Shown here: positions 2 through 18,007 of the stretch, piece after piece | Layout: each line of letters starts with the position of its first letter | How positions within the stretch are numbered: the first letter of the stretch is position 1 | Virus record (IMG/VR): IMGVR_UViG_3300008113_001525 | Coordinates: 1 to 27,406 of that record | Reading direction: 5' to 3' (one strand) | Length of the DNA stretch: 27,406 bases | Source of the DNA: a virus | Program-made: the position numbers and the translations under genes | The notes under the pieces: generated by a model | Seen by the model: only the letters and a program-made list of their open reading frames with translations | What the model was told of the DNA's origin: nothing | Databases searched by the model: none

Positions 2-64
2 CCTGCTCAAGAAGCTTACCGGCATAACCCATCGTGGGTAGATCAAGCAAACCAACAGCTGCGG
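2..64 (+). other. Out-of-frame 5' coding fragment of the giant polyvalent protein
   Basis: The frame beginning at base 2 is open from the window edge and reads like real protein (EAYRHNPSWVDQANQ). The frame of the long downstream gene has a TAA at 25-27 and only becomes protein-like (AAALQNPSTIL) from about base 60. The coding signal therefore seems to jump frame between about 50 and 66. I infer that the giant gene continues upstream of the window and is interrupted by a single indel, either a real mutation or a sequencing/assembly error near an edge. Confidence 0.45.
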
Positions 65-3000
65 CTGCCCTTCAGAATCCAAGCACAATCCTTACGACTG
101 CTGGTGAGTCATTGCCGCAAATGCTTGGCGGTGCTGGTATTGCTCGAGGCTTATTGCAGGTAGCTCCTAAAATTGGCGCTGTAGCAGCTGGTGCCGCAGG
201 CGAAGGTTTGATTGGTGCTGGCGCGGCTGCAGAGCAAATGCGTCAGGAATCCAAAGACAAGTTGTTGTCTGGTAAGCAAGTTATATCTGCCGTTGGTTCT
301 GGCGTTGGTACAGCGGCGTTTGGTGCGGCTGGCGGTAAGCTGGCTAACAAGCTTGGCCTTGATGACATTGATACATTGTTGGCTGGTGGTGCAAGCCAAG
401 CCGCCGGACAAGCCAAGCAAGGCGTTGGCAAATCAGTAAGAGACTTTGCTCTAAAAGCTACGGGCTCTGGTATCTCTGAGGGTGTGTTTGAAGAGTTACC
501 ACAGTCAGCGCAAGAGCAGATGTGGATGAACTACGCCATGGACAGGCCACTCATGGATGGCGTTGCTGAAGCATCCGCCATGGGCATGTTGGCCGGTGTG
601 GGCATGGGTGCGTTTGGTGGTGGTATTGGTAGCCTTCGTAAGACTGGCCAAGCACCAAGCGGCCTTGAGAGCTTGCTTGCAGAGAACAAACAAATACTTG
701 GAGTTCCCCCAGATGAAGGAGCTCCCGCTGGTATAGCACCAGCACCAACAACTCCTCCGTCCACTAGCCCAGTTGTCGGCACCATGACAGTTGATGTTGA
801 TGGAAAGCCTGTTACTAAAGTCACTCGACAGGACGGCAGTGTAGACATTGATGGTGTGCAAGTTACACCGCCAACTGCAGTCGCAGAACCAGTAGTTACT
901 GAGCAGCCACCAAGCACTGAGTTAATTCAGCAAGTTTTGGATGAAAGCCAAGACACAGGTCAGATGATGGGTGAGCTTGAGGGTAAACCCGTAGAGCCAA
1001 CTGTACAAACTCCTGAAGCACCTGTAGTAACTGGTGGTCCAACCGCGCCTGTAGTAGTCAAGCCAAAGCAGCCTACGCCTCAAGTCTTTGAAAAATCTAA
1101 TCAGTTGATGAACGATGAGGTTGCAAAAATTGATTCTGCAGAAAGACTGGCTGTTGAGTATTCAAACATCAGGCAAAGAAAGAACCCTCTTTCAGTTAAT
1201 ACGCAAGCAGATCCTGTTGCCATGCAAGGAGCTTTCCTTGAAAGGCTTGCAGACAATCAACCAGAAAAAGCGGCTGAGTATGCAGCAGAGTTGCAGGCCA
1301 ATGCTGATAAGTACTCTGACTTGTCAGGCATTTCACCCGATTCCGTAAAAGCAATAGCCTCACGAATTACTCAACGCCTTGCATTTAATCAAGAGAAAAC
1401 TGGTAAAGCCCCTGAAGTTACAGGCGGTCCTGCAGCTCCAGAAGCGCCAGCCATCTATAACAATGTTACAGAGCCGTTCGTAACTAACAGGCGTGTTGTT
1501 GTTGTTAAAGAGGTTAACGGCGTTAAGGTTCCGTTCTATATCAGCACTGGTAGTGGCGGTAAAAAGAATGTGCCTACAGGCCAGTGGTATCCATACTTTG
1601 GTAACGGCCCAGATGGTTGGTTCAATAAGGGCAGTGAAGAAGACATCAACAACTTCTATAACTCGCCCGAACTAAAGGCGGCTGCGGATGAGCTGAACAC
1701 CACCATTGGAGACATTCGTTCTCAAATGGGTCAACTGCCCACTGCACAGGCGCTAGGTATAAACCCTAATGAAGGGTTATCTCCTGCAGCCAATGGTGAC
1801 GCAAAGGCCGTTGAGAACATTCGCAATACGATTGACAGGATTACCAAGGGTAGGACTGTAGAGAAGACTCCAGAGGCACCGGTCGAAGAGAAGCCACCAG
1901 AGGAAAAGCCCGTTGATGTTGTTGAACAGCCAGCCGAGGAAGCGCCAGCGGAAGAAAAACCCGCAGAAGAAAAGCCTGCTGAAGAGATACCTACAGAAGA
2001 ATTAGTAAAGCCTGCAGAGGAGAAGCCTGCTGAAGGTGAACCCAAGCCTACAGGCGGTCCATCTGCGCCCGCTGGAGGCCCGTCTGAGCCTACTGGTGAA
2101 GCCCCTACTGGTGGTGCTAAAGAGCCCAAGCCACCCAAGGTAAAGCTTACTGAAGAAGAGAAGACTAAAGCTGCTGAAGAAAAAGCCAAAGCTGAAGAAG
2201 AGAAGAAAGCCGCTGACGAGCAAAAGAAAAAGCTCGAGGAATTTAACAAGCAGCCCATGAAGGTTGCTATGGAAGATGGCAATGCTGATCAGGTTTCAAC
2301 TTTACTGTACGGCAACGCTGTAGCAGAAGACCTTTTCCCAATCATCTTCCCCGCAGAAGGTCTGTTGCGTATTCCTGTGGACTTGCCAAATGTTTCTAAG
2401 ATTGAAGAGGCATTAACTAAGTTTGGCTTCCGCATTACTGATCGTTCTATCCCTTCTGCTACGGATGATCCATCCTACACAGGCCCAGAGCGCGTCACTA
2501 TATCAGCGTTATACAAGCCTGAAAAAATAAGTATTCAAGGTGGTGGTGCTGAGTTTGTAAAGAACCGCAAAGGTAAAGTCACAGCACCCCCAGCTCCTAA
2601 AGACGCTACAGACAGCCAGATTTCTAAGATGTTGGCGGCTGTTGCCAAGGACACGCTACTTGACATTGACTCAAACAAAGACAATTCGTTTGGCGCAATG
2701 ATGTACAAAGAGGGCATCGTTAGTTACATCATGTCGCCGACTGACTACATGTTGAAAGCTTTGAAAGAAGCTAGAACTGTTCGTGTATCAGATAGAACTG
2801 GTGGCCGACAAGCCATTAAGATGGCTCTGGAAGAGGGTAAGCAAGAGGAAGTGCAAAAGCTCCTTCAGAGTTATGTTGATGCACTCCAAGGCTTACAGGC
2901 AATTTTTGACGCGCATGGCCGTATTGGTAATTTAGATCTTGCGTTAAAAGAAAAGTACATTAAAGATGCAGACGCCTCCGCTTCGTTTGCAAAGTACACC

Positions 3001-6000
3001 CAAGATGGATTAGATTTACGTAACAAGATAGAAGCCAATAACATAAGCGCACTCTTTAACAAGATGTTCCAATTGTTTGGTGCTAACGAAGATTCAACCG
3101 ATCAAACCAATCGCGTTGTTAAGAAAGAAACCGAAGTACCACCAGAGTTAGGCAACATTGTTCGCCGTGGTATGCGTGACCACCGACAAGGGCGTGACGT
3201 TGATACAAATGATTTTGTAACTACGTTTGGGTTCTTCCCGGGCGGTATTGACTTTGGTAACTGGGTTAACCAGACTGAGCGAGCTGCTCACCTTAACGCT
3301 ATCTATGACGCCATGTATGACTTGGCGGATGTCTCTGGTATCAATCCAAAGATGTTGGGCTTGGGCGAGAAGCTCAAGATGGCCATCGGAGCGCAAGGTC
3401 GTGGCGGCAAAACTGCAGCTCATTACTATCCCAAGCTTAACGAGATCAACCTAACCAAAACCAAAGGTGATGGATCACTTGGACATGAGTGGCAGCACGG
3501 TTTAGATTGGAACCTTCAACAAACGCCAAACGGCAAGTTGTTAATGTCGGGCACAGTCTCGCGTCTTAAGAAACAGATTGAGATTGAGACAGTAGAGAAC
3601 TACTTAAAGGGTGTTTTGCGTGATACAGCTGGTAGCACAGACAACCGCAATCTTCCTCCAAAGAAAGCATTCTTTGCGGCCATCTCAAATCAAGGCTACT
3701 GGGGTACAGCCCCTGTTATCAGAGATTCAGACAAGCAAACGCAATACTTTAAAGACGCACAGCAGTTAGACCAAGATGAAGGCAGAGAGCCACGTTACTG
3801 GGGCACAGACGTAGAGCTGTTGTCTCGCGCGTTTGAGGCTATGCTGTTTGACGCATCTAAAGGTGGTAGCCCATACCTTGTGGGTCCTTCGGTTGCTGAT
3901 GGATACATTACCAAAAAGAATGGTTATGGCGGCACCATTTACCCACTAGGTAAAGAGCGTCCAAAGCTCAATGAAGTTTATAAGCAGATGCTTACTCAGA
4001 TTGACCCAGAGACTCTGGCAGTCAAGACCTACAAGATGGACACCAAGATTGTCGAAATTGAAGATCTGGGTTATGCAGTCCTAGACCAATACAACTTGGA
4101 TTCAGGTACGTCTGGTGGTTTGGTTTGGTTTAAAACTGAAGACGAAGCCAAACGTACTAAAGCAGCGCGTGATGGCCAAGAGCGAGTCTTGACGCCAACT
4201 GACATGCAGATGAGCAAGGTCAACCAGCACATCATTGACATGGCCAAGCGTATTGACGTCATCATGGAAGAGATGGGTCTGTTCAAGTGGCCTGAGATTA
4301 AGAACGGCTCAATGGCTGAGTCCATGTTCTATCACATGCGTCAGGGCTGGTGGCCAAAGAACAACCGTGAACTGGCTGAGTACGGCATTAAAGCTTACTT
4401 ACAGAATCCAGAGTTGCTTGGCTTTAACCCAGCTAAAGACCAACGTGAGATTGAAAGATACAAGATTGCTGACTTTGAGGGTGATCGTGTTAAGCTTAAG
4501 CAAACTCAGGAAGACTTTGAGGCAGCAGCTACACGCTACATCAGCCAAGTCATTACTGACATGCGAGCGCAGGGCTCAGATACAAAAGCCATCTACGAAT
4601 ACATCGTTAACCTGTATCAGAACCAACCCACGCTGGACGTTCAGTCTGTACTGAGCAAGAGCAACAACGCCTACTCTACGCCGCTGCCTATTGGCTTCTT
4701 AGCAGGTATGCTGGCGCGTGTTAAGTCCACTACAACAGTGTTAGACCCAACAGGTGGTAACGGCATGTTGGTGGTGGCGGCTAACCCACAGAATGTCACA
4801 ACGATAGAGTTAGACCCACACCGTGCAGAGAACATGCGTTTGATGCAAATCGGTAACGTGATTGATGGTGATGCGTTTGAGAAATTAAAAGACCTAAGAG
4901 ATCAAGAGGTTGATGTTGTCTTGGCAAATCCTCCGTTTGGAGCTTTGTCTACGCCTGATAACGTCCCGTCTTGGAATGGCCAGAACTATAAGATTGGTAC
5001 GCTTGATCAAGCGATTGCTGCCAAGTCTTTGCGCGCCATGGCTAACGATGGCCGTGCTGTCTTGATCCTTGGAGCTCACCCCAAGCCCGGAACAATTACA
5101 TCCACAGATCGGGTGTTCTTGAACTGGTTATATGGCAACTATAACGTAGCGGATCACTATGAAATTGCTGGTGGCTTATATCGTAAACAAGGCGCGAATT
5201 GGCCGTTGCGCGTCTTAGTTATTGCCGGCAGAAACCAAACGGACAACGTTTATCCAATTGACTCAACAGTTGATCGGATAACTACATTTGATGAACTTTG
5301 GAGCAGATATGTTCAAACCAGTGATCGTAGCGAACAAGTCGTGGTGGGTACCGGAAAAAAACAGCCAGCGACTGGCGGTGCCGATCAACCAGCCGGAGGA
5401 GTACCAACAAGCGGTGAGGTGGAAGATGGAGGCACTGGCGCAGGAGTGGGGACTACAGAGGGCAGTGGAGTCGGCGAACAACTACCTAAAACAGGACGGG
5501 GCGCTGGAACTACCGCTGGCGGAGGACGAGGAACAGCTGGTGGAGCTGGTACTACTGAACAGCAGCCGGATAGCGGAAAAGGTAAACGAGGGGGACCCAG
5601 CGGTGTCGAAGCCGGCGGAGCCCAAACTGGCGGAGTTAGCGGCGAAGGATCAGGAGGTGAACTGGGAGGACTTTCTGACCTAGACCTAGACAACATCTTT
5701 GATGATTTAGGTAAGCCAGAGAAAGTTAAAGGCGGTCCACGCGCACCCAAAGGTCCAACCAAAGGCGCACCAAGAGCGCCCAAGGGTCCTGTAACCAAAG
5801 GTCCAACAGTCATTCCAAAAGAGTTGGAAGGATTGGGACTAGAGTCATTGTTGGATGAGTTGGACGCCGCGCTAAACGGTAGTGCTCCTGCAGTGCCTAA
5901 AGAAGTTACACCAGAAGACAGCCCAGAGCGCTTAGACAAGCAAGCCGCCGAAGCAATGGGTCGTATTGCCCAAGATACAAAGAACACCAGTGATGACAAC

Positions 6001-9000
6001 AACAGTGGTCAGTACTCACGCAAGGGTGATCAAGACTACGCCAACGTACAGCCAATCATTGAAAAAGTATGGAAAGCTGTCGGTGAAAAGATTACTGACG
6101 TAGCACAGCGCATTAAGCAGGTTTATGCGTTGCTAGTTGGCAAGTTTGGTGAACCCATCAAAGCACACTTACGCACGTTTGTGAATAGCTTACGCACCGT
6201 AATACAAAAGCGCCCAAAGAACCAGACCCCTGTTCAGTCTGAACCTATTGATACAGAGTCACGGGTTGTCTATCTTGGTAAGTCACGCTTTGCCAGCGAT
6301 GGTATTTACTTACCACGCGCACAGTCTCAGCATGCTTACTCTGCACTCGAGAACCTAGAAGCACAAGTTGGCAACATTGATGAGTTTGTTGCTAGTGAGC
6401 TGGGCTACCCATCGGTAGAGAAGATGGCCAAGGGACTGGCGGGCTATCAGATTGATGGCTTGGCTTTGGCCATTCAGGCTAACAAGCTTGGTAAAGGCTT
6501 CATCATTGGTGATGACACCGGCGTAGGTAAAGGCCGCGCAGCTGCTGCCATGATTGTCTGGGCTAAAAAGAACGGGAAGATCCCAATCTTTGTAACTGTT
6601 AATGATTCAATGTACACATCTATGTACGAAGATTTAATTAACATTGGACACGAAGAGTTCAAAATTGGCATGACCAATAACAACGCCATCATCCAGCGCA
6701 ATATGGGTGGTGGCAAGATTAAGACTGTATTTGAGAACAAAGGTAAGGCCGGTCCTGATTTGATGGCTTACATCAAGAAGAACGGTGAATTGCCAAAAGG
6801 CATGGACGTTTTGTTTACGGCCTACTCTCAATTGAACGGCGGAGCTGGCTCTCCTCAACGTCAAGACGCTATTGCATCTTTGGTTGCCCAAGGCAAAGCT
6901 GTTCTGATTATGGACGAAGCGCATAACGCAGCTGGCATCCCGTCTGATTCAGACTCTAGGGGTCAGAACGCATTCTTTATGTCATTGCTGACGGGCATAG
7001 ACTTGCTTGGCAAAGACGTTGAGACTCCAGAAGATTGGGTACCACCACCAGCGGTTTATTTGTCTGCTACGTTTGCAAAGCGCCCAGACAACATGCCTCT
7101 GTACATCCATACCAACTTGCGGTATGCGGCCAATACACCAGAAGAGTTGACCAACTTGTTTGGTAAAGGCGTTAAGACTGACGTCCTGCAACAGGTTTCC
7201 TCTGAGATGTTGGTAGAGTCTGGCTCCATGCTACGCCGCGAGAGATCGTATGAAGGCGTGAAGATGGACTTCGTCACAGACGATGCAAACGCACCACGCG
7301 ACATCCGTGAAGTTGACAAGGTTACAACCATTCTTAGAGCGTTGGTTAACGCTGACCGTGCTCTTAAAGAGTGGTCAAAGGATCCTTCTAATCAAGCTTT
7401 GATCATTAACACGCTTGGCCCACCCGGCTCCATGCTGGGTAAAGAAGGCCCGACTGCCTTTGCTGAAGCCAAAGGTAATCCATTCACCTCTGTAGTCCAC
7501 AACTACATTGGTACGCTACTGCTGTCTGCTAAGACTCAGACTGCCGTAGACATGGTGATCGACAAGATGAACAACGGCGAGAAGGTTGTTGTTGGTCTGC
7601 AGAATACCAATGGTAGTGCGCTAGATGACTTTGTTGCAAAGAACGGCATCAAGATAGGCGATGAGATCCCTAACTTTGGTTGGCAGACTTTGCTTCAGCG
7701 AGCGATTGATTCGACTAGAAAGATCACGCTGAAGTCTGCTACTGGGAATCCAAAAGACAACGTCAAGGTTGAGATCCCATACTCTTTGATGCCTCCATCA
7801 ATTAGGGCGGGCTACGACAATCTGGCAGACATGGTCAAGGACTTCCAGTCTGATTTGCCTGTGGCTCCTATTGACTACATGCGTACACAGCTTGAAGGCA
7901 AGTACGTGTGGACAGCTGACGGTAAGACTAACGTTGGTGATGCACCTCCGCCCGGAGTTAAAGCCAGACGTTTGGTGGTCAAAGAGATTACTGGCCGTAA
8001 CACAGCGGTAGATTACAGTGGCGATAAGCCCAAGTACATGGCTCTGAGCAATCCAGAGCGTACTGAGATGATCTCTTCATTCCAAAACGGTGAAGAGTCA
8101 GAGAACGGACCAATTGATGTATTGATCATTAACTCAGCTGGTGCGACTGGTATTTCGTTACACGCATCTACCGAAGCTTTTGATCAGCGTCCACGCCACA
8201 TGGTGGTGCTCCAGCCTCATGGAGACATTAGCGTATTCATTCAGTTGTTGGGTCGTATCCACCGCACTGGTCAGGTTGAGTGGCCTTCATTCACCATGTT
8301 GGCTACCGGCATTCCAGCCGAGCGCCGTATCTTGGCCATGCTTCGTAAAAAGTTGTCAAGCTTGAAGTCCAACACATCGGGTGGCTCTAGCAGTACCAAG
8401 GTGAACGGCGTTGATTTTATCAATAGGTATGGTGACGTTGCCACTGCCGAGTACCTGAACGAACATGCTGACATCCGTGCATTCTTAGCCCAGCAGTCAT
8501 TTGCAGATCCTGACGAAGCCGCCGGCTCTGACTTGGCTCACAAAGCCTCTGGTACAGCTGGCCTTTTGTCCTCCTCAGATCAGCAGGAGTTCTTTGACTC
8601 TATCGAAGCCAGTTACTTGGCCAATATTGAGCTGCGTAATGCTACAGGAACAAACGCTTTAGAGCGCCGTGTTCTGCCGCTTAACGCTGAGATGATCAAA
8701 GAGAACCTGATCGAGGAAGGCTTGGACAGCACCAACCCATTCTTGTCTGATGTGGTGATGGCTCAGTTCAATGTGGATGTGATTGGTTCAATCCCAACTC
8801 AGAAGAACATTGAAGACGATATTGCCCAAGCTTTGAATGGTCGTACAGCACAGCAAATTATTGAAGAGATTGATACCGATCTCAACACTATCTTTGTTGA
8901 AGTGCGTAACCAGATCATCTTAAAACAGCAAGCTTTGAGTGCGGCCATTGCTGCACCCGGTGCTACTGAAAAAGATATTGCAGAGTCAACAAAGCTAAAA

Positions 9001-9468
9001 GAAGCTTTAGACATGCAGTTTGCCACTCTTGGTGAGCGCAGAGAAAAGACTTTAGCCGCCTTGAGGAATCAGTTTGCCATCGGTACTGGCTTTGATTCAT
9101 TCATGATTAACAACGTGCCAGCAGCTGCTGTTGTGATCGGCGTTAAGGTGGACAAGTCAAGGATTGGTAAGTCAAAGACTGGCAACCCATACTCGCCTTC
9201 TAACTTCCAAGTCATCCTCAAGCGCAATATTCCAGAGGGTCGTGTTGCTCCTACGTTGGCTACCCTTGAAGGTCCAAGCATTGAACGTAGCATTCCAATG
9301 CGTAGACCTCCACTGGATGAGTGGTTTGCTCTGAAGTCAGTGACTGGCGGTCGCACTACTCGTTACATTGCGCTTGGTAACATCCTGAGAGCAGCTCAGT
9401 TGTTTGACAAAGATGGTGGAGAGATCGCCAAGTTCACCCTGCAGAATCAAACAGAGGAAGTTGCGTAA
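34..9468 (+). CDS. Giant polyvalent phage protein: membrane-type N-terminus, zincin-like module, N6-adenine methyltransferase and strawberry-notch helicase (DarB-like), 5'-incomplete
   Basis: 3144 codons are open. The GTG at 34 has no SD and is only the first start after an upstream stop, so the true N-terminus lies outside the window. Order of parts: residues about 10-210 are Gly/Ala-rich and hydrophobic, like phage ejection proteins; about 210-750 are Pro/Glu/Ala linkers with PAEEK-type repeats around a small domain (about 475-565); an FGNW...ERAAHLN segment (about 1064-1110) leads to HEWQH (1151-1155), like the LPD5/LPD1 modules of large polyvalent proteins. A methyltransferase follows with motif I LDPTGGNG (from 1570) and NPPF (1632-1635), then a Gly/Thr-rich linker (about 1755-1885). 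The helicase has GDDTGVGKGR (2159-2168), DEAH (2294-2297), SAT, GATGISLHA and QLLGRIHRTGQ (2737-2747), the strawberry-notch pattern. Methyltransferase plus this helicase is the DarB arrangement of phage P1, which protects injected DNA from type I restriction. The virion/anti-restriction role is inferred from that family. Confidence 0.85.
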   Translation: MGRSSKPTAAAALQNPSTILTTAGESLPQMLGGAGIARGLLQVAPKIGAVAAGAAGEGLIGAGAAAEQMRQESKDKLLSGKQVISAVGSGVGTAAFGAAGGKLANKLGLDDIDTLLAGGASQAAGQAKQGVGKSVRDFALKATGSGISEGVFEELPQSAQEQMWMNYAMDRPLMDGVAEASAMGMLAGVGMGAFGGGIGSLRKTGQAPSGLESLLAENKQILGVPPDEGAPAGIAPAPTTPPSTSPVVGTMTVDVDGKPVTKVTRQDGSVDIDGVQVTPPTAVAEPVVTEQPPSTELIQQVLDESQDTGQMMGELEGKPVEPTVQTPEAPVVTGGPTAPVVVKPKQPTPQVFEKSNQLMNDEVAKIDSAERLAVEYSNIRQRKNPLSVNTQADPVAMQGAFLERLADNQPEKAAEYAAELQANADKYSDLSGISPDSVKAIASRITQRLAFNQEKTGKAPEVTGGPAAPEAPAIYNNVTEPFVTNRRVVVVKEVNGVKVPFYISTGSGGKKNVPTGQWYPYFGNGPDGWFNKGSEEDINNFYNSPELKAAADELNTTIGDIRSQMGQLPTAQALGINPNEGLSPAANGDAKAVENIRNTIDRITKGRTVEKTPEAPVEEKPPEEKPVDVVEQPAEEAPAEEKPAEEKPAEEIPTEELVKPAEEKPAEGEPKPTGGPSAPAGGPSEPTGEAPTGGAKEPKPPKVKLTEEEKTKAAEEKAKAEEEKKAADEQKKKLEEFNKQPMKVAMEDGNADQVSTLLYGNAVAEDLFPIIFPAEGLLRIPVDLPNVSKIEEALTKFGFRITDRSIPSATDDPSYTGPERVTISALYKPEKISIQGGGAEFVKNRKGKVTAPPAPKDATDSQISKMLAAVAKDTLLDIDSNKDNSFGAMMYKEGIVSYIMSPTDYMLKALKEARTVRVSDRTGGRQAIKMALEEGKQEEVQKLLQSYVDALQGLQAIFDAHGRIGNLDLALKEKYIKDADASASFAKYTQDGLDLRNKIEANNISALFNKMFQLFGANEDSTDQTNRVVKKETEVPPELGNIVRRGMRDHRQGRDVDTNDFVTTFGFFPGGIDFGNWVNQTERAAHLNAIYDAMYDLADVSGINPKMLGLGEKLKMAIGAQGRGGKTAAHYYPKLNEINLTKTKGDGSLGHEWQHGLDWNLQQTPNGKLLMSGTVSRLKKQIEIETVENYLKGVLRDTAGSTDNRNLPPKKAFFAAISNQGYWGTAPVIRDSDKQTQYFKDAQQLDQDEGREPRYWGTDVELLSRAFEAMLFDASKGGSPYLVGPSVADGYITKKNGYGGTIYPLGKERPKLNEVYKQMLTQIDPETLAVKTYKMDTKIVEIEDLGYAVLDQYNLDSGTSGGLVWFKTEDEAKRTKAARDGQERVLTPTDMQMSKVNQHIIDMAKRIDVIMEEMGLFKWPEIKNGSMAESMFYHMRQGWWPKNNRELAEYGIKAYLQNPELLGFNPAKDQREIERYKIADFEGDRVKLKQTQEDFEAAATRYISQVITDMRAQGSDTKAIYEYIVNLYQNQPTLDVQSVLSKSNNAYSTPLPIGFLAGMLARVKSTTTVLDPTGGNGMLVVAANPQNVTTIELDPHRAENMRLMQIGNVIDGDAFEKLKDLRDQEVDVVLANPPFGALSTPDNVPSWNGQNYKIGTLDQAIAAKSLRAMANDGRAVLILGAHPKPGTITSTDRVFLNWLYGNYNVADHYEIAGGLYRKQGANWPLRVLVIAGRNQTDNVYPIDSTVDRITTFDELWSRYVQTSDRSEQVVVGTGKKQPATGGADQPAGGVPTSGEVEDGGTGAGVGTTEGSGVGEQLPKTGRGAGTTAGGGRGTAGGAGTTEQQPDSGKGKRGGPSGVEAGGAQTGGVSGEGSGGELGGLSDLDLDNIFDDLGKPEKVKGGPRAPKGPTKGAPRAPKGPVTKGPTVIPKELEGLGLESLLDELDAALNGSAPAVPKEVTPEDSPERLDKQAAEAMGRIAQDTKNTSDDNNSGQYSRKGDQDYANVQPIIEKVWKAVGEKITDVAQRIKQVYALLVGKFGEPIKAHLRTFVNSLRTVIQKRPKNQTPVQSEPIDTESRVVYLGKSRFASDGIYLPRAQSQHAYSALENLEAQVGNIDEFVASELGYPSVEKMAKGLAGYQIDGLALAIQANKLGKGFIIGDDTGVGKGRAAAAMIVWAKKNGKIPIFVTVNDSMYTSMYEDLINIGHEEFKIGMTNNNAIIQRNMGGGKIKTVFENKGKAGPDLMAYIKKNGELPKGMDVLFTAYSQLNGGAGSPQRQDAIASLVAQGKAVLIMDEAHNAAGIPSDSDSRGQNAFFMSLLTGIDLLGKDVETPEDWVPPPAVYLSATFAKRPDNMPLYIHTNLRYAANTPEELTNLFGKGVKTDVLQQVSSEMLVESGSMLRRERSYEGVKMDFVTDDANAPRDIREVDKVTTILRALVNADRALKEWSKDPSNQALIINTLGPPGSMLGKEGPTAFAEAKGNPFTSVVHNYIGTLLLSAKTQTAVDMVIDKMNNGEKVVVGLQNTNGSALDDFVAKNGIKIGDEIPNFGWQTLLQRAIDSTRKITLKSATGNPKDNVKVEIPYSLMPPSIRAGYDNLADMVKDFQSDLPVAPIDYMRTQLEGKYVWTADGKTNVGDAPPPGVKARRLVVKEITGRNTAVDYSGDKPKYMALSNPERTEMISSFQNGEESENGPIDVLIINSAGATGISLHASTEAFDQRPRHMVVLQPHGDISVFIQLLGRIHRTGQVEWPSFTMLATGIPAERRILAMLRKKLSSLKSNTSGGSSSTKVNGVDFINRYGDVATAEYLNEHADIRAFLAQQSFADPDEAAGSDLAHKASGTAGLLSSSDQQEFFDSIEASYLANIELRNATGTNALERRVLPLNAEMIKENLIEEGLDSTNPFLSDVVMAQFNVDVIGSIPTQKNIEDDIAQALNGRTAQQIIEEIDTDLNTIFVEVRNQIILKQQALSAAIAAPGATEKDIAESTKLKEALDMQFATLGERREKTLAALRNQFAIGTGFDSFMINNVPAAAVVIGVKVDKSRIGKSKTGNPYSPSNFQVILKRNIPEGRVAPTLATLEGPSIERSIPMRRPPLDEWFALKSVTGGRTTRYIALGNILRAAQLFDKDGGEIAKFTLQNQTEEVA

Positions 9469-12400
9469 CGCTAATGCTGCAGTGCAATATACGTTGGCTG
9501 CTTGGAATGAAATCCTGCGGAAAAAGTATGACTCCACTCAGATGGAAGATTACAAGGACATAGCAGATAGTTTGGGACAGTACCTGCTGCCAAACTTGCC
9601 AAGCTTTGTGCCGTATGCAGAAAACTCAAAAAACTCTTACACCACTAAAGTTGTTCGTGGTGCCAATAACATTTGGACATTGACGTTAGACAGCTACAGG
9701 CCGACTGGCTTTAGGTTGTCCATCTCTGGTGATGCGCCTAAGAAGTTTGTTACGTCTATCAAAGGCGTTTCATTGGCCAAGAAAAAGGGCGGCCCTTATG
9801 AGATGTCCCAACGGGATGTTATTGCAAACCCATCAAACCTTATTGCCCTGATTAAAAACCTGCACAAGCACTACCCTGCCACAGTGGAAGCTGACGCTGG
9901 CCCACTTGCCCGTGAGGTAATGAAGGTTGAGTTTGATGACTCTGAGTCCAAGAAGGGAATGTTCTCTCGCGCTATACCCGAGGGTGGTCAGAGTGTTGAG
10001 GATGTAGAAGCTCAGATCAAAGCAATCAAGGGTATCAATGTTAAAGTGGTTCAGTCTGCTGACAACTTGCCTGATGCAGCTGCTCCCGCTGATGTTGAAG
10101 GCGCTTGGTTCTCAGGTAACACTGTTTACTTGGTGGCTGATAACCTACCAAACGCCCAGCGTGTTCAGGAAGTGCTGGCGCATGAGGCCATTGGTCACGC
10201 TGCATTGGAAGGCATGCTTGGTAAAGACCTGATGAAGGTCATGGTCCAGAATGTTCAGGACTTGGAGAAGACTTCTAAGGTTGTCCAAGGGATTGCCGCC
10301 CAAGTAGACCGCACACAACCCGGCCTATCACCCGAGCGCCGTGCTAAAGAGATCGTGGCCATGATGGCAGAGCGCGGAATGCAAAACAGCATCATCCAGC
10401 GCGTCATCAAAGCAGTGCGTGGTTGGTTAAGAAGCTCTGGATTTACTCTGCAGTTCTCTGACAACGACATCTTGGCGTTGCTCCAGAATGCGGAAACGTT
10501 CTCTGGTGAGATGGCAGACGCCACAAGCGAAGCTTTGTACTCCAGAAACTTTAAAGGTGGACCCGGTGCATTGTCTACGTGGGAAGCTGCTGACGATCTG
10601 AAGTTAACAGACACACTTGTTTACAAGTTCATTGATAAGCACATCGACACCAAACGTGTGATTGAGGCTATCAACAATGAGTCTGGCCGTATTGAAGATA
10701 ATTGGAATCCCTACCTGAAAGAAGAGTTGTTCCATGGTAGAACGGCCAAGCAGACTACAGACTTCCTGAAGAATGACTTGCGTCCTTTGCTTCAGGATAT
10801 GGATAAGCGCGGGGTTACGCTTGATGAATTCAACAAGTACCTTCACGCCAGACATGCAAAAGCTCGTAATGACTTTATTGCTAAACGTGATCCGACCAAG
10901 CCTGATGGTGGTTCGGGATTGTTTAATGACGAAGTAGACATCTACATGAATGCTTTGGACGAAACTCCAGAGCTGAAGAAGAGTTACGAGCAGCTTGCTA
11001 AGAAGATTGATGAGATCGTTACTGGCACTCAAGAGCTGTTAGTGTCCTCCGGCTTGGAAAAGCAAAGCACGATTGATACTTGGCGCGAGAGCCTTCCATT
11101 CTATGTGCCTCTGAACCGTGAGCCTGACGAGCTTGACTTTATCAATGCAAGCAGTGGCATGGGTCAAGGCTTTGCTGTAAAGGGTTCATTTACTAAAGCC
11201 GCAGTAGGTTCGTTCAAGACTGTCAGCGACATCATCGGAAGTTTGGCACTTGCGCGTGAACGTGCCATCGTCCGTGCAGAGAAGGTTCGTGTTGGACGGG
11301 CGCTGTATGCGCTGGCCATTCAGAATCCTAACCCCAACTTCTGGAAGCCAATCAACCCTGACGCCATTAAGAACAAGGCTAAGTTGATTGATGAGATTGT
11401 TGCTTTGGGAATGAACCCCAATGACGCAAACAACATCTTCCAAGAGCCAAAGACCGGTGCGATTGATAAGAAGACTGGCTTGGTTAAGTACGAAATCAAT
11501 CCAAACATGCGTAACTCGCCTAACGTATTGGCGTTGCGTATCAATGGTGAAGACCGCTACGTGTTCTTTAACCCCGGCAACCCAAGCGCCAAGCGCATGG
11601 TGGAAACCTTAAAGAACATCGGCATCAATGACTTAGACGAAGTACTTGGTAGCGTTGCTGAGATCACCCGCTTCATGGCGGCTGTGAATACCCAGTACAA
11701 CCCTGTGTTCGGTGCGTGGAACTTTACACGCGACTTACAGGGTGCTGCCATCAACCTTTCTAGTACGCCTCTTGCGGATAAAAAGGGTCAGGTTATTGCT
11801 GACTCTATGACTGCTGTTAGAGCCATCTATCGCGTCCTGCGCGGTAAGCCAGCCACAAATCCAGAGATGCAGAAGTGGATGGACCTGTTTGAGCAGTTCC
11901 AAAAAGCTGGTGGCCAGACTGGATTCCGCGAGCAGTTCAGCCGTGGTCAGGGTAAGGACACAATTGTTGCCCGTGAGCTGGGACGTTTGAGCCGTAGCAA
12001 CGTCAAGCAAGCCGCCTATGCTGTCTTTGATTGGCTGTCTGACTATAACGATGCACTAGAGAATGCTGTCCGTTTGGCTTCGTTCAAAGCTGCGTTGGAC
12101 AAAGAGATGTCTGAGGATCAGGCAGCAAGTTTAGCTAAGAACATCACTGTTAACTTTAACCGTAAGGGTGCAAGCACTCAGACGATTGCCGCCTTGTATG
12201 CGTTCTTTAACGCCGCAGTCCAAGGTACAAAGCGTTTAGTTGAAACACTGTTTACAAAGGACAAAACTGGCAAGATTAAACTGAGCTCACTTGGTAAGAA
12301 GATCATTGCAGGCGGTATGTTCCTTGGCGTCATGCAGACCGCTATTCTGGCGATGGCTGGCTTTGGTGCAGATGAGCCTCCTGAGTGGGTAAAGTCTAAG

Positions 12401-13276
12401 AACTTGATCGTTCCATTGGGCGATGGCAAGTACTTGACCATCCCCATGCCGCTTGGATTCAACGTCTTCCCTAACGTTGGTAGACTGATTGCCGAGTACA
12501 TGATGGTTCAAGCTGGCGCGATGAATGGTAGACGCGACCTTCAGACAACCATCACAAACATCTTTAATGCAATACTTGGTTCTGTTAACCCGCTAGGAAC
12601 TAGCACGTTTGCTCAGACACTGGCGCCAACCATTGTTGATCCATTCGTTGCGATTGCCGAGAACAGGGATGCCTTCGGACGTCCTATCTCAAGAGAAGAC
12701 AAAGCTCTTGCTCCTTCGCCCGGATATGAGCGTAGCCGTGAGACTGCAAACTTTGTGTCCCAAGGCTTGGCTTACGCGCTGAACTTCATCACTGGTGGTG
12801 GCGACAAGGGCATAGGTTTGGTCAGTCCTACGGCAGATCAGATCAGTTATGTGGCTGGCCAGTATGCTGGTGGTGTTGGTAAGCTTGTCATTCAGACGGG
12901 CGAGTTCGTTAAGAGTCAATTCACTGGTGAAAAGGTAGAGACTTATCAAATACCAGTAGCAGGCAAGCTCTATGGCGACATCAAAACGCCGGCAGCTATC
13001 GCAGGCGTGTTCTACGAGAACATTAAGGTAATGTCCAACCACGAACGGATCATTAAAGACATGAAGGGTAAGGGCGTAGAGGCTTACTACAAAGAGTCAC
13101 CTGAAGCCAGACTGTGGCGGCGCGCTAACTACGTTGAGAATGAGATTGCTCGCCTCAAGAAAGAGAAAAAGGCCTTGAAGGAACGCAATGCCCCCGAGGC
13201 CCAGATTAAACGCAAAGATGAAGCCATCAAAGAGAAGATGGATGCGTTTAACAAACAAGTTAGCAAGGTCCAATAA
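9413..13276 (+). CDS. Second part of the giant polyvalent protein: zincin-like module and LPD38-like C-terminal region
   Basis: About 1287 codons, in the +1 frame relative to the preceding giant ORF and overlapping its last 56 bases. No start has an SD: ATG 9413 lies inside the previous gene, and GTG 9482 or ATG 9542 are alternatives. Protein-like sequence begins right at the upstream stop (9466-9468), so this may be the continuation of the same polypeptide after a frame break. Visible parts: HEAIGH at about 257-262 preceded by VQEVLA, a zincin-like metallopeptidase motif; a helical stretch; FSR (184-186) and YSR (376-378) at module borders; a long region with WNFTRDLQGA (from 769) typical of LPD38-like polyvalent C-termini; a hydrophobic segment near 963-985; and a Lys/Glu-rich coiled coil at about 1235-1285. 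It is likely a virion/ejected component. The peptidase activity is unproven. Confidence 0.8.
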   Translation: MVERSPSSPCRIKQRKLRNANAAVQYTLAAWNEILRKKYDSTQMEDYKDIADSLGQYLLPNLPSFVPYAENSKNSYTTKVVRGANNIWTLTLDSYRPTGFRLSISGDAPKKFVTSIKGVSLAKKKGGPYEMSQRDVIANPSNLIALIKNLHKHYPATVEADAGPLAREVMKVEFDDSESKKGMFSRAIPEGGQSVEDVEAQIKAIKGINVKVVQSADNLPDAAAPADVEGAWFSGNTVYLVADNLPNAQRVQEVLAHEAIGHAALEGMLGKDLMKVMVQNVQDLEKTSKVVQGIAAQVDRTQPGLSPERRAKEIVAMMAERGMQNSIIQRVIKAVRGWLRSSGFTLQFSDNDILALLQNAETFSGEMADATSEALYSRNFKGGPGALSTWEAADDLKLTDTLVYKFIDKHIDTKRVIEAINNESGRIEDNWNPYLKEELFHGRTAKQTTDFLKNDLRPLLQDMDKRGVTLDEFNKYLHARHAKARNDFIAKRDPTKPDGGSGLFNDEVDIYMNALDETPELKKSYEQLAKKIDEIVTGTQELLVSSGLEKQSTIDTWRESLPFYVPLNREPDELDFINASSGMGQGFAVKGSFTKAAVGSFKTVSDIIGSLALARERAIVRAEKVRVGRALYALAIQNPNPNFWKPINPDAIKNKAKLIDEIVALGMNPNDANNIFQEPKTGAIDKKTGLVKYEINPNMRNSPNVLALRINGEDRYVFFNPGNPSAKRMVETLKNIGINDLDEVLGSVAEITRFMAAVNTQYNPVFGAWNFTRDLQGAAINLSSTPLADKKGQVIADSMTAVRAIYRVLRGKPATNPEMQKWMDLFEQFQKAGGQTGFREQFSRGQGKDTIVARELGRLSRSNVKQAAYAVFDWLSDYNDALENAVRLASFKAALDKEMSEDQAASLAKNITVNFNRKGASTQTIAALYAFFNAAVQGTKRLVETLFTKDKTGKIKLSSLGKKIIAGGMFLGVMQTAILAMAGFGADEPPEWVKSKNLIVPLGDGKYLTIPMPLGFNVFPNVGRLIAEYMMVQAGAMNGRRDLQTTITNIFNAILGSVNPLGTSTFAQTLAPTIVDPFVAIAENRDAFGRPISREDKALAPSPGYERSRETANFVSQGLAYALNFITGGGDKGIGLVSPTADQISYVAGQYAGGVGKLVIQTGEFVKSQFTGEKVETYQIPVAGKLYGDIKTPAAIAGVFYENIKVMSNHERIIKDMKGKGVEAYYKESPEARLWRRANYVENEIARLKKEKKALKERNAPEAQIKRKDEAIKEKMDAFNKQVSKVQ

Positions 13277-15234: not shown

Positions 15235-15954
15235 TTAAAAAAATGATCGTTTTGCGTTTGTAAAGTTTTCTATGACGTCAGCATAGACAGAAGGGTTCAA
15301 GGCTTTGAGCTTGTCGTACAAAGCTTTGTTCACTTGGAACATCTGCTTGAGCTGATCGGCATCGGTGGCCATGCTGATCTTCAGATTGTTCACTTCAACC
15401 ATCATGTCAACCCATGATTCGTCATCGGGCGCATCAATGATCATGGTCCACTCAGGCTTTGTCTCTACATACTGTGGCGGAATAGGGTCTACTTTGCCTT
15501 TAACGGGCTTTGTAGGCGCTTTTAGCTCTTGGACGGGGCTTGGCTTAGGTGCAGGCTTTGGCGCTTCCTTAACGGCTTCTACGGGTGGTGCAGAATCTAT
15601 TGAGTCGTGCTCGGTCAGCTCCATGGCTGCCATCCAAAGGTAACGGCGCTGATAAGTCTGTATGCTACCCATGAGCTGGATAGGCTGGGCACCCTTGAGA
15701 GATGCCTCGGCCATTGGGCTGGTGATCACAATGACTGTGCCGTCTTCTGTATCAGTGATACAGAGCTGGGCATATTCAGTGTTAAAGGAGACTACCCCAC
15801 ACAAACCAACCTCATGAAAGATGGTCTGAATGTGTGGGATGAAGTCACCCAACTCAAAGTATGAATACCCTTGGTAGGCATTCTTGCCCGACTTCTTCAT
15901 CTCTACAGACTGAAGCTTGACTCGGGCGGACATGAGTTTCTTATGCACTGACAT
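15235..15954 (-). CDS. erf: ERF-family single-strand annealing protein
   Basis: 239 aa. Residues about 1-120 match the ERF superfamily pattern: SARVKLQSV..MKKSGKN.Y.GYSYFELGDFIPHI, a beta-rich core, and MGSIQTYQRRYLWMAAMEL, the conserved region before the helical end. A Pro/Lys/Ala linker (about 130-165) joins a helical C-terminal region (to 239) that may bind partner proteins. ERF proteins anneal complementary single strands during phage recombination and genome circularisation. The start has GAAGGA eight bases upstream and overlaps the upstream gene by 14 bases. A PD-(D/E)XK nuclease two genes upstream would supply the resected ends, the usual exonuclease/annealase pairing. Family call strong. 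Confidence 0.88.
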   Translation of the reverse strand: MSVHKKLMSARVKLQSVEMKKSGKNAYQGYSYFELGDFIPHIQTIFHEVGLCGVVSFNTEYAQLCITDTEDGTVIVITSPMAEASLKGAQPIQLMGSIQTYQRRYLWMAAMELTEHDSIDSAPPVEAVKEAPKPAPKPSPVQELKAPTKPVKGKVDPIPPQYVETKPEWTMIIDAPDDESWVDMMVEVNNLKISMATDADQLKQMFQVNKALYDKLKALNPSVYADVIENFTNAKRSFF

Positions 15955-16334: not shown

Positions 16335-16346
16335 CTAACGGACCTC
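16325..16346. repeat. 11-bp tandem duplication causing a frameshift
   Basis: On the plus strand TGACGGACCTC (16325-16335) is followed directly by TAACGGACCTC (16336-16346), with one mismatch in eleven. Eleven bases is not a multiple of three, and the duplication creates the TAG that ends the nuclease ORF. Confidence 0.85.
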
Positions 16347-17129
16347 TATCTCGTACTCTTTCCCATACTCGGCCACCTTGGCCTGAGCTTCTTCATCGGT
16401 ATTGCAAACATTACGTGCTTTGACATTACCAATCTTTTTCACTGCGTATGTTGTAGGCTTCTCCCACATCTGGTCGGGCGTACAAAATGGCAGTTCATCT
16501 CCTGTCTCCAAGTCAAACAATGCGTTGGAGTGTTCTTTAATCTTTCCCATGATGAAGGCTTCGCGCCGTTCCATCGACCATAACGGCACTGAGATCACTT
16601 TGATGGGGGCTTCTGGGTAGCCGGGCTTGAGGGCTGCATCTCTGCGTGACCAATCACGAATGATGGCTACGATCTCGAGCTTGGAAACCTCAACCTTTTT
16701 GACGTACTCAACCAACCATGCGTAGATGTTGAGCTGGTACTCCCAGTCAACCTTCTCATTCATAACAGACCAAGCGCCTGTGGTTTTGTAGTCGTTGATT
16801 GTGACTGTGCCGTCTGCGTTGATGATCTGCAGGTCAATCGCACCAGAGATAGACCATCCATCAATCTTTGCGTGGAGGCGCTCTTCGATCAGGTGGTTCT
16901 CGTCTTTGCCATGCTCGAGGACGCCGTGGATGGCTGTACCAAAGATAGACCAGACCATTTCGGTAACGTCTGTCTCGATCTTGTCCTCATGCAGTTTGCG
17001 TAATTGCACAATGCGTGGTGAGTTAATCAGCTCTGTGGCAGAGATGTTGGCCTTACCCTTTGAGTAGGTAGGGCGCTTCATGATGTTCACGAAGGTCTGT
17101 GGTAGGTTGTATTTGTTTGTGATGATCAC
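16335..17129 (-). CDS. PD-(D/E)XK nuclease (RecB/Cas4-like), C-terminus truncated by frameshift
   Basis: 264 aa as it reads now. The catalytic core is present: GTAIHGVLEHG (H68), GAID (D99), INDYKTT (D113, K115) and the QLNIYAW motif (Q132, Y136), the order seen in RecB-family PD-(D/E)XK exonucleases. Phage relatives resect DNA ends for an annealing protein, here the ERF product two genes downstream. The reading frame ends at TAG inside an 11-bp tandem duplication. Removing one copy restores a 292-aa protein ending in RCANFCSVSGFCNQY, a CX3CX5C cluster expected to hold iron-sulfur or zinc. All catalytic residues survive, but the metal-binding end is lost, so stability or DNA binding is probably reduced, unless the duplication is a sequence error. 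It overlaps the alpha-CTD-like gene by four bases. Confidence 0.82.
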   Translation of the reverse strand: MIITNKYNLPQTFVNIMKRPTYSKGKANISATELINSPRIVQLRKLHEDKIETDVTEMVWSIFGTAIHGVLEHGKDENHLIEERLHAKIDGWSISGAIDLQIINADGTVTINDYKTTGAWSVMNEKVDWEYQLNIYAWLVEYVKKVEVSKLEIVAIIRDWSRRDAALKPGYPEAPIKVISVPLWSMERREAFIMGKIKEHSNALFDLETGDELPFCTPDQMWEKPTTYAVKKIGNVKARNVCNTDEEAQAKVAEYGKEYEIEVR

Positions 17130-17467
17130 AATTGACCCTTCAATTTAAAGCCGCGCTTGTTTGCCTCGGCAACAATGTCATTTGCTGACTTGCGTCCCAT
17201 GTTTACCAACTTTAAAAGATCAGTGTATGTGTACTGAATCAGTTCAGACGGTGTAAATATGCCCTCGGCCTTCAATACATTTACGCATCGCACGGGAAGA
17301 TCCCATCCCGACAATGAAACTGTTGGGTCTGGCGCTGGGTAAATTGAGCGTTCGTTTGCTTCGTTAGAGCAAGTTTTTATCAGGGTGGCGCACTCCATCA
17401 ACCTTTTAAGGTCGTATAAGCTATAGACGCCAGCCTCAAGAAAGATGCCCGGAATTGTTTTTAACAC
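17126..17467 (-). CDS. RNA polymerase alpha-subunit C-terminal-domain-like protein
   Basis: 113 aa from a GTG start with AAAGGAG about six bases upstream. Residues about 54-112 follow the bacterial RpoA C-terminal domain closely: LPVRCVNVLKAEGI, ELIQYTYTDLLKL, NMGRKSANDI, RGFKLKG. Residues equivalent to the UP-element and activator contacts of E. coli alpha-CTD are kept: R60 (R265), N63 (N268), G91 (G296), K93 (K298), S94 (S299), with D97 at E302. There is no assembly domain; the first 45 residues are unrelated and unrecognised. A free alpha-CTD could bind AT-rich DNA or sigma/activator surfaces and redirect host transcription, or act as a decoy; this is inference. It is the first gene of the leftward operon, immediately behind a strong promoter, consistent with early expression. 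Confidence 0.82.
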   Translation of the reverse strand: MLKTIPGIFLEAGVYSLYDLKRLMECATLIKTCSNEANERSIYPAPDPTVSLSGWDLPVRCVNVLKAEGIFTPSELIQYTYTDLLKLVNMGRKSANDIVAEANKRGFKLKGQL

Positions 17468-17490
17468 TGTTTTCTCCTTTGGGTTATAAT
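17461..17490 (+). promoter_or_regulatory. Predicted sigma70 promoter for the RuvC-like gene
   Basis: TTAACA (17461-17466), 18-base spacer, TATAAT (17485-17490), giving a predicted start near 17497 and a leader of about 50 bases before the resolvase ATG. The -35 overlaps the first codons of the divergent alpha-CTD-like gene. Its footprint overlaps the opposing minus-strand promoter. Confidence 0.5.
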
Positions 17491-17499
17491 CGGCAACAC

Positions 17500-17529
17500 A
17501 TTATACCCACAACAATTCATGTCTTGCAA
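17500..17529 (-). promoter_or_regulatory. Predicted sigma70 promoter for the leftward recombination operon
   Basis: On the minus strand TTGCAA (17529-17524), 18-base spacer, TATAAT (17505-17500), with transcription expected from about 17493 into the alpha-CTD-like gene. The spacer contains CATGAATTGTT (17521-17511), an 11-mer found again in the promoter at 18681-18710, so it is a likely operator. Confidence 0.6.
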
Positions 17530-17548
17530 TACCTTTTGAAAGAATTTT

Positions 17549-18007
17549 ATGATTAAGATTGGAATAGACCCCGGATTATCTGGCGCCATAGTCATCATGG
17601 ATGGGGATACGCCTGTTGCGTGGTATCGGATGCCGACAATGAAGACGGGCTCGGCTAATCGTGTGAATGCGCCAGCGTTGGCTGCGATTATTCGGCCATC
17701 AATTTATGGGGAAGAGATCAAAGCCTATGTCGAGCTGGTAGGTAGTATGCCCGGCCAAGGCGTGGCTTCGATGTTCTCGTTTGGACATTCTGCTGGTGTT
17801 ATCCAAGGTGTACTGGGCGCGTTTGAGATCCCTGTAACGATGGTAACACCCAGTCAATGGAAGAAGCGCGCGGGGTTAGTGGGTCAGGACAAGGATGCCT
17901 CGAGGACAAAGGCCATCCAGATGTGGCCAAGCTGGCGTGAGCTGGATAAAAAAGGCGTAGGTCAAGCGTATTCAGATGCGGCATTCATTGCACTTTACGG
18001 AGAATGA
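17549..18007 (+). CDS. RuvC-like Holliday junction resolvase
   Basis: 152 aa. The RNase H-fold resolvase pattern is clear: IGIDPGLSGAIVI with D7 at the N-terminus, YVELVGSMPGQG with E62, the VTPSQWKK strand, and YSDAAFIALYG with D143 at the C-terminus, matching the spacing of the RuvC acidic residues. Phage RuvC-like enzymes cut four-way junctions and branched DNA before packaging or during recombination. The start has only a weak GAAAGAA upstream. It is transcribed divergently from the recombination operon and followed by an intrinsic terminator, so it seems to be a single-gene unit. The family assignment is firm; substrate details are inferred. Confidence 0.88.
   Translation: MIKIGIDPGLSGAIVIMDGDTPVAWYRMPTMKTGSANRVNAPALAAIIRPSIYGEEIKAYVELVGSMPGQGVASMFSFGHSAGVIQGVLGAFEIPVTMVTPSQWKKRAGLVGQDKDASRTKAIQMWPSWRELDKKGVGQAYSDAAFIALYGE

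What the first reader, a model, noticed from the sequence alone, without database searches (positions are those of the whole stretch)
17126..17467. Phage-encoded free alpha-CTD of RNA polymerase
The C-terminal 60 residues keep the equivalents of E. coli alpha R265, N268, G296, K298 and S299, the residues that contact UP-element DNA. The subunit-assembly domain is absent. It is the first gene behind a strong promoter. A stand-alone alpha-CTD could recruit or divert host polymerase and activators to favour phage promoters, a takeover strategy distinct from classical phage sigma or anti-sigma factors.
Basis: partly seen in the sequence, partly recalled or inferred. Interest (0 to 1): 0.7.

Follow-up and report, generated by a model that had tools for sequence, protein, structure and literature searches.

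The report
Phage accessory gene resembling RNA-polymerase alpha-CTD
A freshwater phage carries a small swappable gene whose protein is the DNA-touching tail domain of bacterial RNA polymerase fused to a short phage-specific piece; many phages have such stand-alone domains annotated but I found no study of what they do, so the gene is real and testable but not a new kind of thing.

Summary
The 113-aa ORF at 17126-17467(-) passes Pfam's RNA-polymerase alpha-CTD cut-off (46.6 vs 23.8 bits; generic HHH_5 fails). It keeps the equivalents of alpha R265, N268, G296, K298 and S299, folds as an alpha-CTD (1z3e: rmsd 1.0, TM 0.89), has no alpha-NTD, and is under purifying selection.

The takeover reading is only partly supported. 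The gene is a cassette in a variable slot between a divergent RuvC gene and a PD-(D/E)XK exonuclease-ERF recombination operon. Relatives with a 99%-identical exonuclease lack it exactly; others carry a second alpha-CTD type with an unrelated N-terminus, a GIY-YIG nuclease, a methyltransferase, unknown genes or nothing. The 'strong promoter' belongs to the operon and is conserved with or without the cargo. Directly upstream lies a UP-element-like A/T stretch (11/14 matches), the sort of site a free alpha-CTD could bind.

Best explanation: an accessory, alpha-CTD-derived, DNA-binding modulator of host-polymerase transcription at UP-type promoters, with partner choice set by the N-terminus. Activation, repression or decoy cannot be told from sequence. 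Stand-alone phage alpha-CTD proteins are already named in UniProt, so it is a new member of a known, functionally unstudied kind.

The parts
17126..17467 (-). stand-alone alpha-CTD-like protein gene (113 aa, GTG start, own RBS at 17474-17479)
17138..17314 (-). alpha-CTD domain (residues 52-110): R60, N63, G91, K93, S94 = E. coli R265, N268, G296, K298, S299
   Evidence: Pfam; PDB sequence search; determinant table; AlphaFold2/Foldseek
17324..17467 (-). phage-specific N-terminal region (residues 1-48), predicted helical, low-to-medium confidence, more constrained than the domain (dN/dS 0.06-0.09)
17134..17484 (-). cassette: the stretch exactly missing in relatives L010 and L029
17500..17529 (-). 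operon promoter TTGCAA (17524-17529), 18 nt, TATAAT (17500-17505); TTGCAA-18-TAYAAT kept in 30 of 30 aligned copies with or without the alpha-CTD gene
17531..17550 (-). UP-element-like A/T stretch just upstream of the -35 hexamer, 11 of 14 matches to the E. coli full UP consensus
16335..17129 (-). PD-(D/E)XK exonuclease, start codon overlapping the stop codon of the alpha-CTD gene; truncated in this record by an 11-bp tandem duplication
15235..15954 (-). ERF-family single-strand annealing protein, same operon
17549..18007 (+). divergent RuvC-like Holliday-junction resolvase

Best explanation
An accessory phage protein made of a captured RNA-polymerase alpha-CTD joined to a phage-specific N-terminal piece. 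SHOWN (sequence or prediction): it is an alpha-CTD with the DNA-contact (265) determinant essentially intact; it is the first, optional gene of the recombination operon; the operon promoter has a UP-like A/T stretch; both parts of the protein are under purifying selection; phages carry alpha-CTDs on several unrelated partner regions. INFERRED: made by host polymerase, it binds the minor groove of A/T-rich UP-type promoter DNA, next to or in place of the host's own tethered alpha-CTD, while the N-terminus binds a phage or host partner. It thereby shifts host polymerase away from or onto particular promoters, most simply by competing at UP elements, including that of its own promoter (self-limiting expression). 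The direction of the effect is not determined.
For: Family and fold: (the PDB fold matches with E<=0.001 are RNA-polymerase alpha chains, alpha-CTDs or polymerase complexes). DNA-contact residues retained. UP-like element 11/14 in the window, at least 10/14 in 25 of 30 copies; in-window background for at least 11 is 0.0003, composition-shuffle P 0.012. Purifying selection. The same domain on different partner regions: type B in the same slot, Microbacterium phage 'DNA binding protein', Bacillus phage Goe8 gp5 annotated 'RNA polymerase subunit alpha', whose N-terminal homologue in phage SBSphiC lacks the domain, Ruegeria phage V16. Precedent: purified free B. subtilis alpha-CTD binds promoter DNA in gel shifts and prefers a UP-type promoter (PMC2801614). 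Phages do target this surface: T4 Alt and ModA modify alpha R265 (PMC2988021). No single-subunit phage RNA polymerase was seen in the record or nine long relatives, a weak negative because the search's control genomes gave no hit.
Against: No binding or transcription data exist. The sigma-facing 258/259 acidic residues and part of the activator-facing 285-288 patch are changed, and type B in the same slot has lost K298, so DNA binding may not be the conserved function across the slot. The UP-like element is also present in relatives without the gene, so it does not point to this protein specifically. Free alpha-CTD was used at 5 uM to see binding, so affinity may be weak.
Confidence: 0.45

Rival explanations
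1. Recombination accessory: the helix-hairpin-helix domain has been repurposed as a general DNA-binding subunit that assists the overlapping exonuclease and the ERF protein on DNA ends.
For: First gene of the operon, start/stop overlap with the exonuclease, always directly upstream of the exonuclease (or with one GIY-YIG gene between) in all carriers; partial match to generic HHH_5.
Against: Relatives with a 99%-identical exonuclease and 95%-identical ERF lack it; other slot tenants are unrelated (GIY-YIG, methyltransferase, unknowns), so position reflects a cargo site; alpha-CTD proteins in other phages are not next to an exonuclease (Goe8, V16); the match is specifically to alpha-CTD and HHH_5 is below its cut-off.
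Confidence: 0.2
2. Decoy: a free alpha-CTD soaks up host activators or an alpha-CTD-targeting enzyme (for example a rival phage's or host's R265-modifying enzyme), protecting or rewiring polymerase without acting on DNA.
For: R265 and N268 are kept in every phage copy examined, even where K298 is lost; R265 is a known phage target; variable-slot cargo is typical of conflict genes (general knowledge).
Against: The activator-facing 285-288 patch is altered; nothing in the sequence names a target; R265 and N268 are simply invariant in alpha-CTDs.
Confidence: 0.15
3. Autoregulator of the divergent ruvC/recombination promoter region only, with no effect on the host.
For: Gene lies next to a conserved divergent promoter region with a UP-like element and an imperfect dyad.
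Against: The same promoter is equally conserved in relatives that lack the gene, so a dedicated regulator is not needed.
Confidence: 0.12

Closest known systems
RNA polymerase alpha subunit C-terminal domain (PF03118), e.g. E. coli RpoA 250-329, B. subtilis 1z3e/3gfk
   Same: Fold, 265 DNA-contact determinant, sequence family
   Different: No alpha-NTD, so no tether to polymerase; sigma-facing and activator-facing patches altered; a phage-specific N-terminus is added
Phage proteins named 'RNA polymerase alpha subunit C-terminal' in UniProt/BFVD (uncultured Caudovirales phages; Rhodococcus phage Finch; Mycobacterium phage Mithril)
   Same: Small phage proteins carrying an alpha-CTD on another N-terminus
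   Different: Whether they share the N-terminus or the recombination-operon slot was not tested; named by domain only, and I found no functional study in the searched library
Microbacterium phages Mazun/Morrill/Atraxi/TrippleS 'DNA binding protein'; Bacillus phage Goe8 gp5; Ruegeria phage V16 gp23
   Same: alpha-CTD on a non-RpoA protein in isolated phages
   Different: Unrelated partner regions and genome positions; Mazun and Morrill lack K298, Goe8 has R298
T4 Alt/ModA
   Same: Phage manipulation of the alpha-CTD/UP-element contact
   Different: Enzymes that ADP-ribosylate host alpha R265; not alpha-CTD copies
NCBIfam PRK07758 (NF005841), a ~95-aa stand-alone hypothetical protein
   Same: Stand-alone protein with weak similarity to the alpha-CTD region
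   Different: 16.5 bits against a cut-off of 115: not a member

Membership tests
RNA polymerase alpha-CTD domain family (PF03118) | Score above the curated cut-off | tested here: met
   46.6 vs 23.8 bits; relatives 47-54 bits
RNA polymerase alpha-CTD domain family (PF03118) | alpha-CTD fold | tested here: met
   AlphaFold2 domain pLDDT about 80-89; Foldseek 1z3e_B rmsd 1.0, TM by target 0.89
RNA polymerase alpha-CTD domain family (PF03118) | 265 determinant (R265, N268, C269, G296, K298, S299, E302) | tested here: met
   all identical except C269V and E302D in the window copy
RNA polymerase alpha subunit (RpoA) | N-terminal assembly domain (alpha-NTD) | tested here: not met
   113-aa protein; NCBIfam rpoA models match only their C-terminal ~70 positions, far below cut-off
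Free UP-element-binding protein | Binds A/T-rich upstream DNA | not testable with these tools
   needs a gel shift or footprint
Generic helix-hairpin-helix protein (HHH_5) | Score above the curated cut-off | tested here: not met
   22.3 vs 27 bits
Phage host-takeover factor acting on RNA polymerase | Contacts polymerase or changes host transcription | not testable with these tools
   no binding or expression data

The most novel reading that the evidence does not exclude
Phages repeatedly capture the alpha-CTD and graft it onto interchangeable partner-binding pieces, making a family of plug-in transcription modulators that dock at UP elements without being polymerase subunits; here two versions with unrelated N-termini alternate in one cargo slot.
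Probability: 0.25. Interest if true: 0.75.

Novelty: new member of a known kind. Interest (0 to 1): 0.42.

Why it matters
Stand-alone alpha-CTDs recur in unrelated phages, are named only by domain, and are functionally unstudied as far as my searches show. This locus gives a clean test bed: closely related operons with and without the gene, a second version in the same slot, and a conserved promoter with a UP-like element. If it acts on host polymerase, it would be a way of hijacking transcription by copying a polymerase domain instead of modifying or blocking it.

Tried and rejected
Several 'phage' database hits are bacterial rpoA: MT835508 was read and is a complete rpoA; other 'Bacteriophage sp.', Salmonella, Listeria, Staphylococcus and Enterococcus hits look the same but were not each checked. 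The Klebsiella jumbo-phage hit (H7) is antisense and spurious. Scan with the near-identical alignment A1 found nothing new. No copy in bacterial genome contigs by pattern scan; the exonuclease hits three small MAG contigs in three different phyla, so the host stays unknown. Tree of the domain: A and B each form a group but are joined with support 67 only, and V16 joins A on a very long branch, so one capture or two cannot be told. A difference in UP-like score between carriers and non-carriers (11.1 vs 10.1) is confounded by relatedness. PHROGs has no family for it. Literature searches found no study of a phage-encoded free alpha-CTD; the library holds open-access papers only.

Full report
OBSERVATION. 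The ORF at 17126-17467 on the minus strand is real: 113 residues, GTG start behind an AAGGAG box, stop codon overlapping the start of the next gene. Residues 52-99 match Pfam RNA_pol_A_CTD at 46.6 bits (cut-off 23.8); the generic helix-hairpin-helix family HHH_5 stays below its cut-off. Searching the PDB by sequence returns RNA-polymerase alpha chains throughout. An AlphaFold2 model from nine phage sequences gives pLDDT of about 80-89 over the domain, and its best PDB fold matches are alpha-CTDs (1z3e_B rmsd 1.0, TM by target 0.89). The patch that faces sigma is weakened (258 S, 259 G, 261 D) and the activator patch is changed (286 Y, 287 T, 288 D).

RELATIVES. Three viral contigs encode the same protein (83-100%), all with RuvC - alpha-CTD - exonuclease in the same order. 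L002 is nearly the same phage as the window, so there are three independent copies. Pairwise dN/dS is 0.10-0.20 overall; the N-terminal 48 residues (0.06-0.09) are more constrained than the domain (0.10-0.27). This argues for a real protein whose N-terminus has a specific partner.

SURROUNDINGS. The gene heads an operon with a PD-(D/E)XK exonuclease, a small gene and an ERF annealing protein, and is divergent from a RuvC-like resolvase. The exonuclease brought in 80 related viral loci. In them the space between ruvC and the exonuclease is a cargo slot: empty (76-88 bp) in L010, L020, L029, L035, L037-L041 and L043; this alpha-CTD (type A) in L002-L004; another alpha-CTD protein (type B, about 110 aa, predicted beta N-terminus) in L017-L019, L024 and L027, and directly upstream of the exonuclease in L031 (which lacks a divergent ruvC); GIY-YIG nuclease in L014, L024, L025, L027 and L048; methyltransferase in L044-L047; and unknown genes elsewhere (families). 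A PF03118 search over 50 of the records found 8 with the domain, all at this place. In L010 and L029, whose exonuclease is 99% identical to the window's, the stretch 17134-17484 is missing exactly and the same promoter feeds the exonuclease directly. Their ruvC is only 79% identical, so the slot also marks a recombination junction. The gene is thus optional cargo; whether it was gained or lost on this branch is not resolved.

PROMOTER. TTGCAA-18-TAYAAT is present in the window and all 29 relatives compared, cargo or not. Hexamer scanning alone would not have been significant (3 found, 3.7 expected); conservation is what supports it. The 20 nt directly upstream match the E. coli full UP-element consensus (recalled from my own knowledge of Estrem and colleagues' work) at 11 of 14 positions; 25 of 30 copies reach at least 10. 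The in-window background for at least 11 is 0.0003 and the composition-shuffle P is 0.012. Because the element is also present without the alpha-CTD gene, it most simply serves the host polymerase's own alpha-CTD; a free copy could compete there.

OTHER PHAGES. Type B has lost K298, and some copies G296, but keeps R265, N268 and (mostly) S299. Genuine alpha-CTD proteins occur in Microbacterium phages ('DNA binding protein'), Bacillus phage Goe8 gp5 (annotated 'RNA polymerase subunit alpha'; its N-terminal homologue in SBSphiC ends before the domain) and Ruegeria phage V16. BFVD holds many phage proteins named 'RNA polymerase, alpha subunit, C-terminal'. So the kind is known by name. I found no functional paper in the open-access library.

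MECHANISM. Free B. subtilis alpha-CTD binds promoter DNA in gel shifts and favours a UP-type promoter (PMC2801614), and T4 attacks alpha R265 with ADP-ribosyltransferases (PMC2988021). With the DNA-contact residues kept, the most likely action is binding of A/T-rich promoter DNA plus an N-terminal partner, modulating host polymerase (0.45). Rivals are a recombination accessory (0.2), a decoy (0.15) and a local autoregulator (0.12). The optional nature of the gene argues against an essential takeover factor.

VERDICT. Observation confirmed; interpretation partly supported; new member of a known, unstudied kind. The added finding is the cargo slot with two alternative alpha-CTD proteins and clean with/without pairs for experiments. 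Limits: G000 is a 31-kb fragment, the host is unknown, and no binding data exist.

Noticed in passing
window 16335-16350 (-): The exonuclease gene ends 28 codons early because of an 11-bp tandem duplication relative to the nearly identical contig L002; the lost tail holds three cysteines that could belong to a metal cluster. Intact copies exist in relatives. Strain variant or assembly error.
   Followed up: partly
window 17500-17529 and the same place in relatives: The promoter region TTGCAAsACATGA..TGGGTAYAATGTGTTGCC is very highly conserved and contains an imperfect dyad (GCAAGACA ... TGTGTTGC) around the -10, possibly an operator.
   Followed up: partly
window 34-9468 (+) and 9404-13276 (+): Giant polyvalent proteins: 3144 aa with methyltransferase-like, LPD1 and Strawberry-notch-type helicase parts, and 1290 aa with LPD38.
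   Followed up: partly
L013 4890-6004, L021 and L028 equivalents: A two-gene cargo (phrog_4652 + phrog_5926, unknown function) fills the same slot in several relatives.
   Followed up: no
L008 5935-6801 (Ruegeria phage V16 gp23): alpha-CTD with a C-terminal part; the gene is annotated as pyrophosphatase in RefSeq. Related Ruegeria phages (DSS3-P1, V7, V11, V18) match only a short stretch outside the alpha-CTD.
   Followed up: partly
G087:C1:1345627-1345755: A 54-codon open frame with an alpha-CTD match in a bacterial genome, apart from its rpoA: possible stand-alone cellular copy.
   Followed up: no
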